In this document: piece after piece, positions 19,030 through 36,611 of the stretch
Numbering within the stretch: the first letter of the stretch is position 1
How the letters are laid out: each line of letters begins with the position of its first letter
Source: Thermoanaerobaculia bacterium
GTDB lineage: Bacteria; Acidobacteriota; Thermoanaerobaculia; Thermoanaerobaculales; Sulfomarinibacteraceae
Assembly: GCA_027061805.1 (NCBI GenBank)
Contig: JAMOWA010000018.1
Coordinates: 62,001-126,000 of the forward strand
DNA length: 64,000 nt
Direction of reading: 5' to 3'
The notes under the pieces: generated by a model
Databases searched by the model: none
What the model was told of the DNA's origin: nothing
The model's input: only the letters and a program-made list of their open reading frames with translations
Translations under genes and position numbers: made by a program

Positions 19030-19092
19030 TCGGGGTCACGGCGTGGTCCGGAACACAGGCCAGAGCCCGTTGAAGTGGTAGAGTCTGACTCG

Positions 19093-19794
19093 ATGGGAGA
19101 GCGGCTTCTCGTTGCCGCGGTCTTCGTGACCGCCTTGGTGGCTGTCTTCTGGCTGGCACTCGTCCGGACGATCCACCAGGGGACGCTGACCGTTCCGGAC
19201 CTCACGGGCTCCGACGTGGAGGAGGCCCGTCAGATGGCCCACGACCGGGGCCTCGACATGGAGATCGTCCGGCCCGGGGTGTTCTCGGAGGCCGTTCCGC
19301 CAGGATCCGTCGCCGTCCAGGAGCCCCTGCCGGGCTTCCACGTCAAGAGCGGTGCCACGGTGAGCGTTCGATTGAGCCTGGGCAACGAGCGCGTGGCGGT
19401 GCCCGATGTCCTGGGCGACTCGCTCCAGGGTGCCACGGCGGTCCTCGACCAGGAGGGGCTCCGGCCGGGGCGCAGGGCCACGGTTCGCGGCCAGGCCGCG
19501 GGAGACAGCGTCCTTGCCACGGCGCCACCCCCGGGAGTCGAGGTGGCGCCGGGGACCGAGGTGGACCTCCTGCTCAATGAGACCCCACGGCAGGCCCTCT
19601 GGGTCATGCCCTCCTTCCTGGCGCTCTCCCGGAGCACGGTGGAGCGATTCTGCCGTCAGCACCGCTTCCGCGTGGGCCAGGTTCACGAGGTGGCCTACCC
19701 GGGCCTGCCCCCGGGGACGGTGCTCCGGCAGTACCCTCCCGCCGGCAGCCCCCTCTCCCGATCCGATATCATCGCGTTATGGGTGAGCCAATGA
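19093..19794 (+). CDS. Membrane-anchored protein with three PASTA domains
   Basis: Starts at ATG 19093 (MGERLLVAAVFVTALVAV); an in-frame GTG 18 bases upstream is possible. Residues 4-24 form a single N-terminal membrane anchor. Three PASTA repeats follow, beginning VPDLTGSDVEEARQMA, VPDVLGDSLQGATAVL and VMPSFLALSRSTVERF, with typical spacing of about 65-70 residues. PASTA domains bind muropeptides or beta-lactams in PknB kinases and PBPs. Here there is no kinase or transpeptidase domain, so it may be a stand-alone peptidoglycan sensor or scaffold. Its end overlaps rpe. Confidence 0.85.
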   Translation: MGERLLVAAVFVTALVAVFWLALVRTIHQGTLTVPDLTGSDVEEARQMAHDRGLDMEIVRPGVFSEAVPPGSVAVQEPLPGFHVKSGATVSVRLSLGNERVAVPDVLGDSLQGATAVLDQEGLRPGRRATVRGQAAGDSVLATAPPPGVEVAPGTEVDLLLNETPRQALWVMPSFLALSRSTVERFCRQHRFRVGQVHEVAYPGLPPGTVLRQYPPAGSPLSRSDIIALWVSQ

Positions 19795-27675: not shown

Positions 27676-28899
27676 TCAGCGGTTCTTGATGGCGGCCTTG
27701 AGCTGCTGGACCTGCTCCCGGAGCTGCTGGGCCTCCTCCACCTGGCCGAGCTTCTCCAGCTCGTCGGCCTGGGCCTCCAGCGCGGCGATCTTCCGCTTGT
27801 ACTCCTCGAGCTGCCTCTCGGCCTCCTCATTCTGCTTCTGCTTTTCCTTCTTGGCCTTCATCTCGTTGACCTTGGAGGTGTTGCCGATGGTGGCGTACAT
27901 CTCGATGGCCTTGTCGTAGCTCTTCTTCTTGTCGTAGATGTAACCGAGCTGGTTGTAGACCTGCCGCCGCAGCTTGCCGTCGGCTCCCAGCTTGATCGCC
28001 TTCTGCAGCTCGGCGATGGCGGTATCGTACTTGCCGAGCTGGGTGTAGCTCTGCCCCATGTAGAAGTGGACCAGTGCGTTCTGGGGCTTCTTTGCGGCCG
28101 CCTTCTCGAACCAGGTGAGGGCGCTCGAGTAGTTCCTGGCACCGAGCAGGGTCTCCCCGGCCAGCAGCAGGTGCTCGAAGGTCGGCCTGGCCGAGGCCAG
28201 CTTCTTCGCGATCCTGGCCGCCTCCTGGTAGTAGGTCGCCTTCGCCGAGGCACTGGCCCGCCGTCCGGCGGCGATGGCGGCGTAGACGGCGGACCGCCCG
28301 CTGCCATAGTCCTTGGGGTTCAGACTGAAGGCCTTGGCGAAGGCCCGGAACGCCCTGGCGTCATCGCCCGCCTCGTTGTACGCCACACCCAGGGCCTGGA
28401 AGAGCCGGGCGTTCTTGGGATCGGCCCGCGTCTGCTGCTCCAGCACCCTGATGGCCTCCTGGGGCCGGTTGGTCTTGGTGGCGGCCCGCGCGAACAGCAG
28501 GGCGTACAGGCCCTTCTGCCGCGCCGCGAGCTTGGCGGGCTTCACCTTCTTGAGGAGGGAGTACGCCTCGGCATACTGCTTGGCCTGGATCAGCACCTGG
28601 GCGAGCGCCACCTTGTACTGGGGGTTGTCACCGTCGAGCTCCACGGCCTTCCGCAGGTTCCCGAGCGCCTGGCTCGTCTGCCCCAGCTGACTCTGGGCGA
28701 GTCCCAGCATGTAGTATCCGCCCGCGAAGTCAGGGTTGGTCTTCGTGACGTCGGTGAACTCCTTCACCGCCGTCCTGTAGTCCTTCTTCTGGTAGGCGGC
28801 CACTCCCTTCCCCCAGTCCGCGAAGGCTGGCAGGGACACCACCGTCAGAAGCACCGCCAGGACCGCGAGGGTCCGCCAGGGCCGGGTTGTCCACATCAT
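27676..28899 (-). CDS. Secreted TPR repeat protein
   Basis: 407 aa, exported by an N-terminal signal peptide (WRTLAVLAVLLTVVSLPAFA). About seven TPR-type helical repeats fill residues 28-340 (GVAAYQKKDYRTAVKEFTDV, GYYMLGLAQSQLGQTSQALGN, FYMGQSYTQLGKYDTAIAEL and others). The C-terminal 60 residues form a charged coiled coil (EMKAKKEKQKQNEEAERQ and following). It is probably a periplasmic scaffold. It starts 4 bp inside the end of the DUF4388 gene and is the last gene of the exbB-exbD-exbD-tonB operon, so it may organise the TonB machinery. Confidence 0.85.
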   Translation of the reverse strand: MMWTTRPWRTLAVLAVLLTVVSLPAFADWGKGVAAYQKKDYRTAVKEFTDVTKTNPDFAGGYYMLGLAQSQLGQTSQALGNLRKAVELDGDNPQYKVALAQVLIQAKQYAEAYSLLKKVKPAKLAARQKGLYALLFARAATKTNRPQEAIRVLEQQTRADPKNARLFQALGVAYNEAGDDARAFRAFAKAFSLNPKDYGSGRSAVYAAIAAGRRASASAKATYYQEAARIAKKLASARPTFEHLLLAGETLLGARNYSSALTWFEKAAAKKPQNALVHFYMGQSYTQLGKYDTAIAELQKAIKLGADGKLRRQVYNQLGYIYDKKKSYDKAIEMYATIGNTSKVNEMKAKKEKQKQNEEAERQLEEYKRKIAALEAQADELEKLGQVEEAQQLREQVQQLKAAIKNR

Positions 28900-29765
28900 T
28901 GGGTTTTCCTCCTCGCCGACGCCGCCGCGCCGGATTCCGTCGTCATTCCAAGCAACGGTCTCACCTGCTCATCGAACATGGCCGCCACGTCGGCGCCCTT
29001 GAGCAGGGAGATGGCCTTGCTGTGCTGGTCCACCATCTCACGGATTGCCTCGATACCATCGCCACGCTCGATGCGGGTCCTGGCCGCGAGGTACTGCCGT
29101 TCGATGGTCCGTTCTCCGGACTCTCCCGTCACGCTATGGGCCATCTTCCGGATCTTTTCCGCAAGCCCCAGCAGGGTCACGGGGCTTGGCCCGCCAGAAA
29201 ATCCCGATCGGGAGCTCTCGCCGCTTCCCTCCTCGCGGAGGGCCACGAGTCCGGAGGTGATCATTCCGAACAGGAGCTTCGAGACGTCGAAGGCCGACCA
29301 CCGGAGAATCCTGGCGATCTCCCTGATGGTGCGATTCCCGTCGATCCTGGTGATGAGGATCCACTCCTGGGGGCTCAGGGTCACCTGGTCCTGTCCCTGT
29401 CCCCGGTCCGCAAAGTACGGCACCAGGTGGAGCGAGGGAATCTTCCGGGAGAGCACTCTCCACTCGTCGAGCCGCCGTGCCGCCTCCATCATGAGGTTGG
29501 CATTGGACTTCTGGATGGTGACGCGCGGGGCCTCCTCACCGGGGGTGAACATGAACTCTCCCTCGGACCAGATGGCCATCTCGTAGACCGCGTGCTCGCC
29601 CGTGAGCTCGCCCACGCTGGCATCCACGATCTGACCCTCCTTCAGAAAGATGACACCCTTCGTGTCATCCCTCTCAAGGTGGAACGCACCCGTCTTGCCC
29701 GACACGGCCACGAGCTGGATCACGTCGGGCAACGAGAGCTCGGAGAGGGATCCCTGAAGCGCCAT
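28896..29765 (-). CDS. DUF4388 (PatA-like N-terminal) domain protein
   Basis: 289 aa, cytoplasmic. Residues 1-95 match the DUF4388/PATAN-type domain (MALQGSLSELSLPDVIQLVA, GAFHLERDDTKGVIFLKEGQIVDA, AVYEMAIWSEGEFMF), found in bacterial regulators and often tied to motility or type IV pili. Residues about 130-185 look like a winged-helix (SPQEWILITRIDGNRTIREIARIL), and the rest is helical. It sits between tonB and the TPR gene in one operon, so a regulatory role on the Exb/Ton complex is inferred. Confidence 0.8.
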   Translation of the reverse strand: MALQGSLSELSLPDVIQLVAVSGKTGAFHLERDDTKGVIFLKEGQIVDASVGELTGEHAVYEMAIWSEGEFMFTPGEEAPRVTIQKSNANLMMEAARRLDEWRVLSRKIPSLHLVPYFADRGQGQDQVTLSPQEWILITRIDGNRTIREIARILRWSAFDVSKLLFGMITSGLVALREEGSGESSRSGFSGGPSPVTLLGLAEKIRKMAHSVTGESGERTIERQYLAARTRIERGDGIEAIREMVDQHSKAISLLKGADVAAMFDEQVRPLLGMTTESGAAASARRKTQ

Positions 29766-29783: not shown

Positions 29784-30512
29784 CTACTGGAGCGAGAACC
29801 GCACGGTCAGAACGTAGATGACCTCCACGGGCTTGCCGTTGAGTGTGGAAGGCTTGAACTTCCACTTCTTCACCGCATTGACCGCGGAATCCGTCAGGCC
29901 CAGGGGCATGCCCCGGAGGACCTTCACGCTCTTCACTTTCCCCCGCTTGTCAATGACACACTCCAGCACCACCACGCCCTGCATTCGCGCCCTGCGGGCG
30001 GCCTCGGGGTAGACGGGCTGTGGTGCCGAGATCTTCACCGGCTCCGTGATGTTCCCGCCAGCCACGAAGCGGACGGGGCCCTCGGGCTCCGGTGGCGGCG
30101 GCGCCTCGGGCACGCCGAGCACCAGGTTGTCATCGGGGATGAAGTCGATGTCCTCCTGGGGCTCCTCCTCGCGGATGGGCTCCGGCTCGTCCGGCGTGGG
30201 ATCCGGAATCGGGACCTTCTTCATCTTCGGCTTCGGGATCTTCTGGAGCTCCTGCTTGGGAGGCTGCTTGAACTTCACCTGCTTGACCACGAAGATCTTG
30301 GTCTTGTTCTTGTTGGCATCAGCCGAACCCGCAGCAAAGGAGGGCCAGTGCATGATGAAGAAGATCACATGCAGCACCACGGCGATCCCGATGGACCACC
30401 GGAACCACTTGCGCTCCTGAGCCTCTTCCTCCGCGATGATCTCGATGACCGTCGGCCGGAGCTTGGGGCCGGCAGCAGTCGTCCTGTTCGCGCTGTTCTT
30501 GTTGTCGGTCAC
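29784..30512 (-). CDS. tonB: TonB energy transducer
   Basis: 242 aa. A 40-residue cytoplasmic N-terminus precedes one membrane helix (about 38-56, WSIGIAVVLHVIFFIMHW). A Pro/Lys/Glu-rich periplasmic linker follows (about 70-130, KQPPKQELQKIPKPKMKKVP and PEAPPPPEPEGP). The C-terminal TonB domain starts ISAPQPVYPEAARRARMQG and ends in VIYVLTVRFSLQ. Spans the periplasm to energise TonB-dependent transporters. The cytoplasmic extension ahead of the helix is longer than in E. coli TonB. Co-transcribed with exbB and two exbD genes. Confidence 0.92.
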   Translation of the reverse strand: MTDNKNSANRTTAAGPKLRPTVIEIIAEEEAQERKWFRWSIGIAVVLHVIFFIMHWPSFAAGSADANKNKTKIFVVKQVKFKQPPKQELQKIPKPKMKKVPIPDPTPDEPEPIREEEPQEDIDFIPDDNLVLGVPEAPPPPEPEGPVRFVAGGNITEPVKISAPQPVYPEAARRARMQGVVVLECVIDKRGKVKSVKVLRGMPLGLTDSAVNAVKKWKFKPSTLNGKPVEVIYVLTVRFSLQ

Positions 30513-30527: not shown

Positions 30528-30983
30528 CTACTGGACACCGAACAGTTCCCAGATGTTCTGGATCTCACGCTGGGTCGGGATGGAGATGGTCTTGATCTCC
30601 ACGCCGATCTTGTCCGGCGCCTGGCGCAAGAGATCGAACACCCGGATCATGTCCCCGTAGGTCGCTTCGGGATCGGTCCTCAGGATGACCGGCTTGTCGG
30701 GGTTCTGCTTCAGCTTCTCGGCGATGTAGGGCAGAATCTGCTCCAGGGCCATCTCCTTGCCATCCACGAAGACGACACCGCCCTGCTGGACGTGGACGTC
30801 GATGGAATCCTCCCTCTTGATCTCGGGAGTCGTGGTGGAGTCCTCAGGAAGCTGGAAGTCCAGGCCACGGGTCGCCGAGAAGACCGAGGTCACCATGAAG
30901 TAGATGATGAGCAGGAACGAGATGTCCGCCATGGATCCGGTGAAGATCTCGGACTCGATGTCTTTCTTCTTGACATTCAGCAT
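30528..30983 (-). CDS. exbD: ExbD/TolR family protein (second copy)
   Basis: Start at ATG 30983 (MLNVKKKDIESEIF); a GTG 4 codons earlier directly follows the preceding stop and is possible. 151 aa. One helix (about 20-40) begins with the motor motif SMADISFLLIIYFMVT, carrying the conserved Asp that conducts protons. A periplasmic ExbD domain follows. Together with the first ExbD it would form the dimer inside the ExbB pentamer, possibly a heterodimer. Confidence 0.92.
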   Translation of the reverse strand: MLNVKKKDIESEIFTGSMADISFLLIIYFMVTSVFSATRGLDFQLPEDSTTTPEIKREDSIDVHVQQGGVVFVDGKEMALEQILPYIAEKLKQNPDKPVILRTDPEATYGDMIRVFDLLRQAPDKIGVEIKTISIPTQREIQNIWELFGVQ

Positions 30984-30995
30984 CGTTGCCCCCAC

Positions 30996-31433
30996 CTACC
31001 CCACGTCCTCGACGGTCTTCTGCTCCGAGAGCAGGAAGATCACCTTGGCCTTCGCCTGCTTGAGGGCGTCGAGCACCTTGTCCACGTAGTCGTACTTGGT
31101 ATCCTTGTCCGCCTTGACCACGAACTCCTTGTAGGGGTTCTCGGCCACCACGTTGGAGGCAAAGGTCACCACCTCCTCCTCCGAACCCACGGGGAGGGAC
31201 ATCTCCTTGCCCGTGGAGACCCGGATCACCCCGGCCTTGTCGATGGAGATGAAGGCGGCCTCCTTGGGGATCTCGGTCCGCACCCACGTCTTGGGCAGCT
31301 TGACCTGGGTCCTGTCCACCTCGGGGTTGTAGGTCAGGACGAAGAATACAATCAGCAGGAAGACGATGTCCGCCATGGACGCCGTGAAGATACCGGCCTC
31401 CGTCCTCCTGGCCCGTCCTCGGATGATAGCCAT
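30996..31433 (-). CDS. exbD: ExbD/TolR family protein (first copy)
   Basis: 145 aa: MAIIRGRARRTEAGIFTASMADIVFLLIVFFVLT places the single helix at about 18-38 with the conserved Asp (MADIVFL). The periplasmic domain (about 45-140) includes LPKTWVRTEIP and VVKADKDTKYDYVDKVLDALKQA. It differs clearly in sequence from the second ExbD, so the motor may be asymmetric, as in Myxococcus AglQ/AglS. Stop and start of the two exbD genes are nearly adjacent. Confidence 0.92.
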   Translation of the reverse strand: MAIIRGRARRTEAGIFTASMADIVFLLIVFFVLTYNPEVDRTQVKLPKTWVRTEIPKEAAFISIDKAGVIRVSTGKEMSLPVGSEEEVVTFASNVVAENPYKEFVVKADKDTKYDYVDKVLDALKQAKAKVIFLLSEQKTVEDVG

Positions 31434-31447
31434 CGAGGCCTCCCTTC

Positions 31448-32110
31448 CTAGGCCTGCTGGCCCTCGCCTCCCTGGCCGTACCGCTGACTGTCCATCTCGC
31501 TGAAGGTCTCCAGCAGCATGTTGGTGGCAGTCTCGATATCACGCACAAACCGGTTGATCTTGGTGGTGTACCAGTTGTAGGCCAGCTGGGCCGGAATCGC
31601 GATGATCAGACCGGTGGCGGTGGTGATGAGCGCCTCCGAGATACCGGCGGCCACCTTGCCGGGGTTGGTCAGACCCTCGGAGGCCAGTGTCGCAAACGAC
31701 TTGATCATGCCGGTCACGGTCCCGAGGAAGCCGAGCATGGGAGCCACGTTCGCCGTGGTGGCCAGCACGCCCATGCCCCGCTCGAGGCGGTCAAGCTCGT
31801 ACAGCGCCGCATTCTCGATCGTCTTCTCGATGTCCTCACGGGTGTGGCCGTACCGCAGCAGGCCGGCCTTCATGACGGATGCCACCGGGCCCTTGTACTG
31901 CTCGCAGACCTTGATGGCTTCCTTCACGTTCCGGTTCACCAGCAGGGCCTTCCGGATCCGCGTGAGGAACTCGTTGACGTTCACCTTCGCCTTGGTCAGC
32001 GCGATGTAACGCTCGATGATGAACGTGAGCGCCAACAGGGAGAAGAACAGGAGCGGCCACATCATGGGTCCACCCTGGCGGAAGTAGGTGTAAAGCTGTC
32101 CGAACTGCAC
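31448..32110 (-). CDS. exbB: ExbB/TolQ/MotA family proton-channel protein
   Basis: 220 aa. Three helices: MMWPLLFFSLLALTFIIERYIAL (about 15-37), NVAPMLGFLGTVTGMIKSF (about 120-138) and ALITTATGLIIAIPAQLAYNW (about 160-180). The GLLRYG and ATTANVAPMLGFLGTV segments are ExbB/TolQ hallmarks. It forms the pentameric channel around ExbD that harvests the proton gradient. First gene of a six-gene operon. Confidence 0.93.
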   Translation of the reverse strand: MQFGQLYTYFRQGGPMMWPLLFFSLLALTFIIERYIALTKAKVNVNEFLTRIRKALLVNRNVKEAIKVCEQYKGPVASVMKAGLLRYGHTREDIEKTIENAALYELDRLERGMGVLATTANVAPMLGFLGTVTGMIKSFATLASEGLTNPGKVAAGISEALITTATGLIIAIPAQLAYNWYTTKINRFVRDIETATNMLLETFSEMDSQRYGQGGEGQQA

Positions 32111-33696: not shown

Positions 33697-36369
33697 ATGA
33701 AAGCACACGTCCTTCTCGTCGAGTATGAGCCGCGATACGTGGACCGGGTGACGAAGGCGCTCACGGGTGCCGGACACGAGATCAGGGTCGCGGCGGACCT
33801 GGACCAGGCGGTCGCAAGCTGTGCCCATTTCGAGCCCCACGTGGTGATCCTCACCTCCGTTCTGCCCCGGGTGAAGCTCGAGGACGCCATCACCCAGCTG
33901 CGGGCCCGTGCGGGTCTCCGGAACACACCCTTCCTGATCCTCATGTCCGGGTACCGGGGTACGGACCCGGCGGCGGACGCCGAGGGCTACGGCGCCCAGG
34001 ACATCCTGGAGCGGCCCTTCTCCGGCGATGCCCTGGTGCAGAGGGTGGAACGTCTCCTGGAGAACGCCGTGAGCCCGGCAGCCACACAGGCCATTCCCCA
34101 GGACATGCTGGAGGCCCTCCGGAAGAAGGCGGAGTCCACCGGCGGCGGCACGTCGCTCACCTCGGATGACCTCTTCGGTGACATCCTCTCCGACGTGGAG
34201 GGCGGTGGCGAGGAGCCCGAGGCCGTCCCCGCGAAAACCGAGTCGCCAGAGGAGAAGGCCTCCAGCGAGATCGACAAGACCCTGGCCGATGTCCTGGGAA
34301 ACCTTGAGAGGCCCGGTCCCGCACGACCCAAGGTCTCTACGGCCGAGGCAGACGTGGACGCCATCCTCTCGGAGACGCTCGCTGGCCTGGACGTACGGCC
34401 TGCCATGCGTCCTCCGGGTGGCGCTCCATCCGCACCCCCTGCGGCCCCCGAGAAGTCCGGGAAGCCCCATGTCCCCGCGGAGCGGACGGCTCCTCCTGGC
34501 CCCCCGGCGGAGCCCGGTCAGCCAGCGCCCCCCGAGGGCACGGCCGATGAGGAGGGGGAGCGTTTCGGCCAGTACATCCTGATGGAGCACATCGCCACCG
34601 GTGGCATGGCCGAGGTCTACAAGGCACGGATGCTGGGCATGGAGGGGTTCAAGAAGACCGTCGCCATCAAGCGTATCCTGCCACACCTGACGGACAACGA
34701 AGAGTTCGTCACCATGTTCGTGGACGAGGCCAAGCTCGCGGCGCAGCTCAACCACAACAACATCATCCACATCTACGACCTCGGGAAGATCGACCGCTCC
34801 TACTACATCGCCATGGAGTACATCGAGGGCCGCGATCTCCGCTCGGTGCTGACCCGGTGCCGGGACCGGGGGGTGACCCTCCCCATTCCCCTGGCGCTTT
34901 ACGTGGCCAACCTCCTGGCCTCGGCACTGGACTATGCCCACAGGAAGCGCGACTTCGAGAACCGGGAGCTGGGGCTCGTCCACCGGGACGTCTCGCCACA
35001 GAACGTCCTCATCTCTGAGGACGGCGACATCAGGCTCTGCGACTTCGGCATCGCCAAGGCCGCCTCCAAGGCCTCCCACACCCGGGCCGGCGCGCTCAAG
35101 GGCAAGCTCCAGTACATGTCGCCCGAGCAGGCGTGGGGCAAGTCGCTGGATCACAGGTCCGACCTCTTCTCGCTGGGCCTCGTACTCTTCGAGATGCTCA
35201 CGGGGCAGAAGGTGTTCTCGGGGGACTCCGAGCTCTCCATCCTGGAGCAGGTCCGGAACCCCGAGGTGGACCCGCCCTCCAAGTTCAACCCCGAGGTCCC
35301 GCCCGATGTGGACGCCATCGTCCTCAAGGCGCTCGAGGCGGACCGGGAGCACCGCTACCAGAGCGCCCGGGACTTTCAGCAGGACCTGGAGAAGGTCCTG
35401 CGCGACCACGGCTGGTCGCCAGGTCAGGCCGATCTGGCGGCCTTCGTCAAGGAGCTCTTTTCCGGGGAGCCGGAGGCTGCAGGTGCGCCCCCGGCCGCCG
35501 CGGTACCGCCACCCTCGCCCCCCGAACCTCCGGTTCCGGAACCCCCGGCCCGTCCGGAGCCCGAGTCCGGAGAGCCCGTGGTCGTCCCGCCCGGACCTCC
35601 CGACGAGCCTCCGATTCCCCCGGGGGAGGATGGCGAAGGTCCGGAGGAACCCGGAGAGCCCACGCGGAAGAAGACCCCGGTCGCCCTCATCGCCGGCATC
35701 CTGGCGCTGCTTGCGGTGGCGGCCGTGCTCTTCTTCGTGCTCCGGGGCGGAGGTCAGGCCCCGGCCGTGGCGGTGGTCCCGACGCCCACCCCCCCGGAGC
35801 CCACGGCCACGCCCACACCCTCCGAGGAGCTCAGGCAGCTGATCCGGCAGCAGGCCGAGGCCCTCGTCGCCTCCCAGGAGGAGGAGATGAGGAAGCGCCT
35901 CGAACAGGAGTTCCCCACGCCCACGCCCATTCCACCGACGCCGACCCCCACCGAGACTCCCACGCCGGAGCCCTCGGCGACACCCACGGCCACGCCCACC
36001 ATCACCCCGACCCCGGTGCCGCCCACACCGACCCCGATCCCCCCCACGCCGACCCCCTCGGTCCGTGAAGGCGAGATCGTGGTCCCGGGCCCCGATGTCA
36101 AGGCACCCGTGCTGCTCAAGCGGGTGGCCCCGTCCTACCCGCCCGTGGCACGCCGCCTGAAGCTCAGCGGCGAGGTCCGTCTCCGTGCCCTGGTGGGCAC
36201 CGACGGCCGGGTGGAGGACATCCAGATCCTCAAGGTCTCCCGCCAGGGAGTGGGGTTCGAGAAGGCCGCCGAGCAGGCCGTCCGCCAGTGGGTCTACCGG
36301 CCCGCCACCAAGAAGGGCGTGAAGGTGAAGATGTGGATCATCGTCCGCGTTCCGTTCGCGGTGCAATAG
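33697..36369 (+). CDS. Ser/Thr protein kinase with receiver-like N-terminus and periplasmic TonB C-terminal domain
   Basis: 890 aa. Residues 1-125 form a receiver-like domain whose phosphorylation site is missing (VVILTSVLP where D is expected; the acidic pair and Lys are also altered). A Glu/Pro-rich linker reaches residue 285. A full Hanks-type kinase follows: G-loop ATGGMAEVYKA (about 298-308), VAIK Lys325, HRD at 429-431 (VHRDVSPQNV), DFG at 449-451 and the SPEQ segment. After a second Pro-rich stretch comes one membrane helix (about 661-683). Beyond it lie repeated PTPTP tracts broken by a coiled coil (about 707-738), and a TonB C-terminal domain (about 805-890, VAPSYPPVARRLKLSGEVRL). 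The kinase should be cytoplasmic and the TonB domain periplasmic. GGGAG is the ribosome site. Confidence 0.9.
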   Translation: MKAHVLLVEYEPRYVDRVTKALTGAGHEIRVAADLDQAVASCAHFEPHVVILTSVLPRVKLEDAITQLRARAGLRNTPFLILMSGYRGTDPAADAEGYGAQDILERPFSGDALVQRVERLLENAVSPAATQAIPQDMLEALRKKAESTGGGTSLTSDDLFGDILSDVEGGGEEPEAVPAKTESPEEKASSEIDKTLADVLGNLERPGPARPKVSTAEADVDAILSETLAGLDVRPAMRPPGGAPSAPPAAPEKSGKPHVPAERTAPPGPPAEPGQPAPPEGTADEEGERFGQYILMEHIATGGMAEVYKARMLGMEGFKKTVAIKRILPHLTDNEEFVTMFVDEAKLAAQLNHNNIIHIYDLGKIDRSYYIAMEYIEGRDLRSVLTRCRDRGVTLPIPLALYVANLLASALDYAHRKRDFENRELGLVHRDVSPQNVLISEDGDIRLCDFGIAKAASKASHTRAGALKGKLQYMSPEQAWGKSLDHRSDLFSLGLVLFEMLTGQKVFSGDSELSILEQVRNPEVDPPSKFNPEVPPDVDAIVLKALEADREHRYQSARDFQQDLEKVLRDHGWSPGQADLAAFVKELFSGEPEAAGAPPAAAVPPPSPPEPPVPEPPARPEPESGEPVVVPPGPPDEPPIPPGEDGEGPEEPGEPTRKKTPVALIAGILALLAVAAVLFFVLRGGGQAPAVAVVPTPTPPEPTATPTPSEELRQLIRQQAEALVASQEEEMRKRLEQEFPTPTPIPPTPTPTETPTPEPSATPTATPTITPTPVPPTPTPIPPTPTPSVREGEIVVPGPDVKAPVLLKRVAPSYPPVARRLKLSGEVRLRALVGTDGRVEDIQILKVSRQGVGFEKAAEQAVRQWVYRPATKKGVKVKMWIIVRVPFAVQ

Positions 36370-36383
36370 CAAGGAAGGAGATC

Positions 36384-36611
36384 ATGACCGTGCTGACAGA
36401 TTCCCAGAAGAAGTTCTACGAAGAGGCGCTCAACACCACCAAGCAGGAGATCCAGGAGCTGGAGAACCAGATCCAGGAGGAGCTGGCGAAGGTCAAGCAG
36501 AAGATCGCCGATCTGCAGACGGCCCAGAAGGCCGCCCGCCAGATGTACGACGCGGCCTGCCAGCGCCTCGGCATCCCCAACGACCTCGAGGAAGAGGGCG
36601 GCGAGGGCTGA
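36384..36611 (+). CDS. Small coiled-coil protein
   Basis: 75 aa from ATG 36384 with AAGGAAGGAG upstream, 15 bases after the kinase-TonB stop. It is nearly all one charged amphipathic helix (residues 8-60, KQEIQELENQIQEELAKVKQ and following), ending in an acidic tail (DLEEEGGEG). I recognise no family. Its position suggests co-transcription with the kinase and a possible adaptor or substrate role, which is inference. Confidence 0.75.
   Translation: MTVLTDSQKKFYEEALNTTKQEIQELENQIQEELAKVKQKIADLQTAQKAARQMYDAACQRLGIPNDLEEEGGEG

What the first reader, a model, noticed from the sequence alone, without database searches (positions are those of the whole stretch)
33697..36369. Ser/Thr kinase that ends in a periplasmic TonB domain
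Seen: an intact Hanks kinase (K325, HRD 429-431, DFG 449), one membrane helix at about 661-683, PTPTP-rich stalk, and a TonB C-terminal domain (VAPSYPPVARRL...). Known: TonB domains touch outer-membrane transporters and are normally driven by ExbBD through an N-terminal helix that carries no catalytic domain. Inference: one protein could sense or act on the outer-membrane transport state and phosphorylate cytoplasmic targets, or have phosphorylation gate the transducer. This is the strongest candidate for an undescribed system in the window.
Basis: partly seen in the sequence, partly recalled or inferred. Interest (0 to 1): 0.72.

Follow-up and report, generated by a model that had tools for sequence, protein, structure and literature searches.

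The report
Envelope-sensing kinase with TonB tail
A bacterial protein kinase crosses the inner membrane and ends in a TonB-type domain outside it; its relatives across the Acidobacteriota carry the same tiny unnamed partner gene right behind it, suggesting an undescribed way for these bacteria to report the state of their cell envelope to the cytoplasm.

Summary
ORF 33697-36369 (+, 890 aa) encodes a receiver domain, disordered linker, Hanks kinase, one membrane helix, coiled coil, Pro/Thr stalk and a TonB C-terminal domain. The fusion is no artefact: the architecture recurs across Thermoanaerobaculia (Acidobacteriota) and other families of the phylum, and the small gene follows the kinase in 73 of 73 testable loci. 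The module is swappable: some lineages lost the TonB domain, others the kinase, while the small partner stays. A class-wide paralogue has a dead kinase domain and the same TonB tail; in 19 of 30 loci it follows mltG, a peptidoglycan lytic enzyme. The membrane helix lacks the His found in every genuine TonB of these loci, the strand that would hold a TonB box carries a different, basic motif, and neighbouring ExbBD comes and goes independently. I favour a receptor kinase whose TonB domain is a passive envelope (perhaps peptidoglycan) sensor, not a proton-driven transducer. New variant of a known kind; ligand, substrates and direction of signalling are untested.

The parts
33697..36369 (+). Receiver - Hanks Ser/Thr kinase - TM - TonB_C protein, 890 aa
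   Evidence: orthologues
33709..34050 (+). Pseudo-receiver domain (residues 5-118): CheY D12-D13 = E-Y, D57 = T, T87 = M, K109 = R
   Evidence: Pfam Response_reg E 5.3e-9; residue table
34162..34188 (+). Conserved linker motif SDDLFGDIL (residues 156-164), predicted helix 156-167
34351..34389 (+). Second linker motif DVDAILSETLAGL (residues 219-231), predicted helix 216-229
34579..35361 (+). Hanks Ser/Thr kinase domain (residues 295-555), catalytic residues intact
   Evidence: Pfam E 4.8e-40; invariants; Foldseek best matches PknB
35680..35742 (+). Membrane helix (residues 662-682), no His
35824..35910 (+). Juxtamembrane predicted long helix / coiled coil (residues 710-738)
   Evidence: kept in TonB-less orthologues
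35914..36078 (+). Pro/Thr-rich periplasmic stalk (residues 740-794)
   Evidence: sequence; low pLDDT
36079..36366 (+). TonB C-terminal domain (residues 795-890) with basic edge strand KKGVKVKMW
36384..36611 (+). Partner gene, 75-aa helical protein of no named family, RBS AAGGAG, 14 bp after the kinase stop
   Evidence: sequence; alignment; 73 of 73 kinase loci; no family over cut-off
29784..30512 (-). Genuine TonB with TM His (VLHVIFF); neighbour, probably not part of the system
30528..32110 (-). ExbD, ExbD and ExbB; neighbour, adjacency not conserved with the kinase

Best explanation
A single-pass receptor-type Hanks kinase of Acidobacteriota. Shown by sequence: pseudo-receiver, docking linker with two short helical motifs, active-looking kinase, one TM, juxtamembrane long helix, Pro/Thr stalk, TonB_C domain, and an always-linked 75-aa partner. 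Inferred: the TonB_C domain works as a periplasmic sensor or anchor that binds an envelope component (peptidoglycan or an outer-membrane protein) without being driven by ExbBD; ligand or tension on it changes dimerisation through the juxtamembrane coiled coil and so switches the kinase, much as PASTA domains do for PknB/IreK kinases; the pseudo-receiver and linker motifs dock the small partner and/or substrates on the cytoplasmic side. A paralogous pseudokinase-TM-TonB_C protein, often next to mltG, may share the ligand and regulate or localise cell-wall enzymes.
For: Domain order conserved in orthologues across the class and other families; catalytic residues invariant; TM without the TonB His; predicted long helix right after the TM, kept where the TonB domain is lost; TonB domain has the true TonB fold but a family-specific basic edge strand; partner gene in 73 of 73 loci and kept when the kinase (12 loci) or the TonB domain (9 loci) is missing; receiver lacks the phospho-Asp in 63 of 67; kinase is closest to the PASTA-kinase model and PknB structures; no PASTA kinase found in this genome; pseudokinase-TonB paralogue directly downstream of mltG in 19 of 30 loci; a PASTA kinase is known to phosphorylate MltG (PMC12369325).
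Against: No ligand evidence at all: peptidoglycan is inferred from the gene neighbourhood of a paralogue and from analogy. MltG here has almost no cytoplasmic tail (sequence), so the Enterococcus MltG-phosphorylation mechanism cannot simply be copied. The stalk is never shorter than 117 residues, long enough to reach the outer membrane, more than a peptidoglycan sensor needs. The TonB domain is absent in several lineages that keep the kinase. GltG of Myxococcus, with a similar layout, binds an ExbB-like protein (PMC3169522), so lack of His is not proof of no coupling.
Confidence: 0.5

Rival explanations
1. Outer-membrane transport sensor: the TonB_C domain binds TonB boxes of transporters, perhaps driven by the neighbouring ExbBD, and the kinase reports transport state or phosphorylation gates the transducer.
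For: True TonB fold, close to the BtuB- and FhuA-bound TonB structures; ExbB-ExbD-ExbD-TonB gene cluster within 4 kb in this and related genomes; stalk at least 117 residues; TonB-dependent transporters (Plug) in this genome and all 51 others tested.
Against: No TM His in 105 of 106 kinase helices versus His in 23 of 23 genuine TonBs; TonB-box strand replaced by a basic motif absent from genuine TonBs; E. coli Q160 position Q/N in most genuine TonBs but variable in the kinases; ExbB adjacency independent of the kinase TonB domain; transporters are just as present in lineages whose kinase lost TonB.
Confidence: 0.17
2. Structural or localising role like GltG (FHA-TM-TonB) and GltJ of the Myxococcus gliding machine: the TonB_C end ties a cytoplasmic signalling platform to a trans-envelope machine driven by an ExbB/ExbD-type motor, and the kinase is a passenger that acts where the machine sits.
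For: Same general layout as GltG, which interacts with the ExbB-like AglR (PMC3169522); an ExbB plus two ExbD, as in AglRQS, and a TPR gene lie nearby; TonB-only and receiver-TonB versions without kinase keep the small partner, so an envelope link without kinase is selected on its own.
Against: ExbBD not adjacent in about half of the loci; no other Glt component was recognised or sought systematically; lineages with kinase-TM but no TonB keep the same partner gene.
Confidence: 0.2
3. The TonB_C domain is a neutral hitch-hiker and the functional unit is a cytoplasmic kinase plus the small protein.
For: TonB domain lost several times without loss of kinase or partner.
Against: TonB domain kept in 90 of 105 scorable kinases, under purifying selection in most pairs, and kept in 12 loci where the kinase is gone.
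Confidence: 0.05

Closest known systems
PASTA-type transmembrane Hanks kinases (PknB, StkP, IreK)
   Same: Cytoplasmic PknB-like kinase, single TM, extracytoplasmic non-enzymatic domain; NF033483 is the best kinase model (303 bits) and PknB the best fold.
   Different: TonB_C instead of PASTA repeats (NF033483 cut-off of 450 bits not reached); added pseudo-receiver and an always-linked small partner; a Gram-negative-type envelope.
GltG (PglI) of the Myxococcus xanthus gliding machinery
   Same: Cytoplasmic phospho-signalling domain (FHA), internal TM, Pro-rich stalk, periplasmic TonB_C (PMC3169522).
   Different: FHA reader instead of a kinase; no receiver; part of a motility machine with AglRQS.
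Energy-transducing TonB (here 29784-30512; E. coli TonB)
   Same: C-terminal fold and YP/G186/P217 core, Pro-rich stalk.
   Different: N-terminal TM with conserved His versus internal TM without; TonB-box strand differs; cytoplasmic catalytic domain.
Mycobacterial PknB with the pseudokinase MviN (from general knowledge, not tested)
   Same: Kinase and pseudokinase that both touch cell-wall synthesis.
   Different: Here both proteins carry a TonB_C tail, and no interaction between them is shown.
M56/BlaR1-like peptidase with TonB_C (own genome, L160)
   Same: Another signal-transducer type with TonB_C appended (reading of the sequence only).
   Different: Peptidase, multi-pass, not a kinase.

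Membership tests
Hanks-type Ser/Thr kinase | Pkinase domain over curated cut-off with intact Lys, Glu, HRD, Asn and DFG | tested here: met
   138 bits against a cut-off of 31.7; K325, E344, HRD 429-431, N436, D449 invariant
Hanks-type Ser/Thr kinase | Phosphotransfer activity | not testable with these tools
   no biochemistry
PASTA kinase (NF033483) | Curated score cut-off and extracytoplasmic PASTA repeats | tested here: not met
   303.5 bits against 450; no PASTA domain in the protein
TonB C-terminal domain fold | Sequence profile and fold of TonB CTD | tested here: met
   PF03544 63.4 bits against 24.6; TIGR01352 49.1 against 27.1; Foldseek 1u07 TM-score 0.80 by target
Energy-transducing TonB (ExbBD-coupled) | Conserved TM histidine | tested here: not met
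   window TM has none; 1 of 106 orthologue helices, 23 of 23 genuine TonBs
Energy-transducing TonB (ExbBD-coupled) | N-terminal TM without a cytoplasmic catalytic domain | tested here: not met
   TM at 662-682 behind receiver and kinase
Energy-transducing TonB (ExbBD-coupled) | Binding of TonB boxes and energy transfer | not testable with these tools
   only indirect: divergent edge strand
Response regulator receiver | Fold / profile | tested here: met
   36.7 bits against 30.2; alternating strand-helix model with pLDDT mostly 80-91
Response regulator receiver | Phospho-acceptor Asp and acidic pair | tested here: not met
   D57 = Thr, D13 = Tyr here; 63 of 67 in the named set lack the Asp
GltG/AgmX-type gliding protein | FHA or GltJ-type cytoplasmic domain and AgmX/PglI tail (NF033768) | tested here: not met
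   no FHA; NF033768 not among the 25 models shown for the kinase
GltG/AgmX-type gliding protein | Co-occurring gliding machinery | not tested
   only ExbB/ExbD/TPR neighbours seen

The most novel reading that the evidence does not exclude
An ancient, modular trans-envelope signalling system of Acidobacteriota, built on a TonB_C sensor, pseudo-receiver, kinase and an obligate 75-aa adaptor, with a class-wide pseudokinase twin tied to mltG, in which TonB-fold domains have been turned from energy transducers into cell-wall sensors.
Probability: 0.35. Interest if true: 0.78.

Novelty: new variant of a known kind. Interest (0 to 1): 0.6.

Why it matters
TonB C-terminal domains are almost always read as parts of nutrient import. 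Here is a conserved family in which the domain sits on a receptor kinase, has lost the mark of energy coupling, and is swapped in and out as a module beside an uncharacterised small protein. If confirmed, it would give Acidobacteriota, a large and poorly studied phylum, a defined envelope-to-cytoplasm signalling route, and would show that automatic 'energy transducer TonB' labels can hide receptors. The small-partner family and the pseudokinase-mltG link are directly testable.

Tried and rejected
Chance or frameshift fusion: rejected. Receiver as a phosphorelay input: rejected for most members because the Asp is missing; a few (L142, L149, L150, L154, L233, L263) keep it. Test of transporter dependence by looking for TonB-bearing lineages without transporters: uninformative, all 51 genomes have Plug and ExbD. 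Net charge of the TonB domain: only slightly higher in kinases (7.7 against 5.8), not used as an argument. Literature searches for kinase-TonB fusions found nothing relevant in the open-access library; this is weak evidence of novelty, since domain databases such as InterPro may list the architecture. Foldseek with the full-length model only returned kinases. Families for the small protein: only sub-cut-off helical matches.

Full report
What is there. The frame 33697-36369 (+) is open from ATG to stop, 890 aa. Pfam finds Response_reg 5-118, Pkinase 295-555 and TonB_C 811-887. AlphaFold with 12 aligned orthologues gives a well-folded receiver, a helix at 662-682 in the membrane segment, a long helix at 710-738 right after it, a disordered Pro/Thr stalk and a confident TonB domain from about 795; the kinase itself is modelled only in part. 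The TonB domain alone models at pLDDT 92.9 / pTM 0.80, and Foldseek puts 17 TonB-type C-terminal domains at the top, including those bound to BtuB and FhuA.

Where it comes from. Orthologues with the same order were found in nearly all same-family and same-order genomes looked at. In 80 named loci the gene context is YebC-RuvC on one side, and the small gene, then usually AccD-FolC-dGTPase-RpiB, on the other. The small gene follows in 73 of 73 kinase loci with enough sequence.

How variable it is. The small gene was then used as an independent marker: 106 of 148 class genomes and 108 of 297 genomes drawn from the phylum have it. Of 46 regions from other families, the gene before it is kinase-TonB in 22 (19 with a detected receiver), kinase without TonB in 9, receiver-TonB without kinase in 6, TonB without either in 6, and none of these in 3. 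Within the named set five class orthologues have no TonB domain, and the small gene starts directly after them, so no frame is hidden. On the kinase tree the TonB-less members form several small groups among TonB-bearing ones (90 with, 15 without; six changes, three forced by well-supported branches), which suggests repeated loss; the root is unknown. Two linker motifs, [ST]x[DE][LI]FGD and DIDxLLxxTLxxL, recur in proteins of different architecture and are predicted helical; I infer that they are docking sites.

The receiver. Relative to CheY, the window has E-Y for the acidic pair, Thr for the phospho-Asp, Met for T87 and Arg for K109; 63 of 67 in the named set lack the Asp, with Thr or Ser commonest, and other families often have Glu, Ser, Ala or Arg. 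It is a pseudo-receiver in most members, probably an interaction domain.

Is it a TonB? By fold yes, by mechanism probably not. All 23 genuine TonBs from these loci, and the one in the window, keep a His in the membrane helix; among 106 kinase helices only one has any His, at its end. At the strand which in E. coli TonB pairs with the TonB box (residues about 225-232, from general knowledge), the kinases carry [KR]x[GN][VI][KR]V[KR] in 67 of 101 and the genuine TonBs in 0 of 24. ExbB adjacency is 16 of 33 for TonB-bearing and 4 of 6 for TonB-less orthologues. On the other side, the stalk is at least 117 residues in 89 proteins, enough to reach the outer membrane, and Myxococcus GltG, FHA-TM-TonB, binds an ExbB-like protein (PMC3169522). 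Coupling is therefore unlikely but not excluded.

A dead twin. A second TonB_C protein of the same genome (L159 4476-6350, 625 aa from its ATG) has a kinase-like domain in which HRD reads HGF and DFG reads GFG. In 30 class loci none has the catalytic Asp or the DFG Asp, and all 29 full-length ones carry TonB_C. In 19 of 30 it lies directly downstream of mltG/yceG on the same strand. MltG cleaves nascent peptidoglycan, and the PASTA kinase IreK phosphorylates it in Enterococcus (PMC12369325). This is the main pointer to peptidoglycan. It concerns the paralogue, not the protein itself, and the MltG here has almost no cytoplasmic tail. This genome has no PASTA kinase hit; its only PASTA protein found is a stand-alone membrane protein in this same window.

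Verdict. A receptor-type Hanks kinase with an unusual, TonB-derived periplasmic domain, a pseudo-receiver and a constant small partner. Shown: architecture, conservation, modular loss, partner linkage, missing energy-coupling mark. Inferred: sensor function, ligand, adaptor role. No paper found describes it, within an open-access library only.

Noticed in passing
L159 4476-6350 (own genome, contig C45): Pseudokinase-TM-coiled-coil-TonB_C protein, single class-wide family, mostly directly downstream of mltG; all 30 lack HRD and DFG Asp.
   Followed up: partly
window 36384-36611: 75-aa helical protein with invariant Cys59 and Tyr12, no named family, found in about a third of the Acidobacteriota genomes sampled, always single or double copy.
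   Followed up: partly
window 19075-19794: Stand-alone TM protein with three PASTA domains and no kinase, while no PASTA kinase was found in the genome.
   Followed up: partly
L248-L253, L261, L264, L267, L268: Genes before the small gene that carry TonB_C (with or without receiver) but no kinase; a receptor without its enzyme.
   Followed up: partly
L160 3493-4719 (own genome): Peptidase M56/BlaR1-like membrane protein ending in two TonB_C domains (by sequence reading).
   Followed up: no
window 27676-29765: TPR protein and DUF4388 protein downstream of TonB-ExbD-ExbD-ExbB, conserved as a cluster across the class.
   Followed up: no
family f8 of the class (for example G043, G046): This family lacks the small gene, and its main genus has hardly any kinase-like sequences: the whole system seems lost there.
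   Followed up: no
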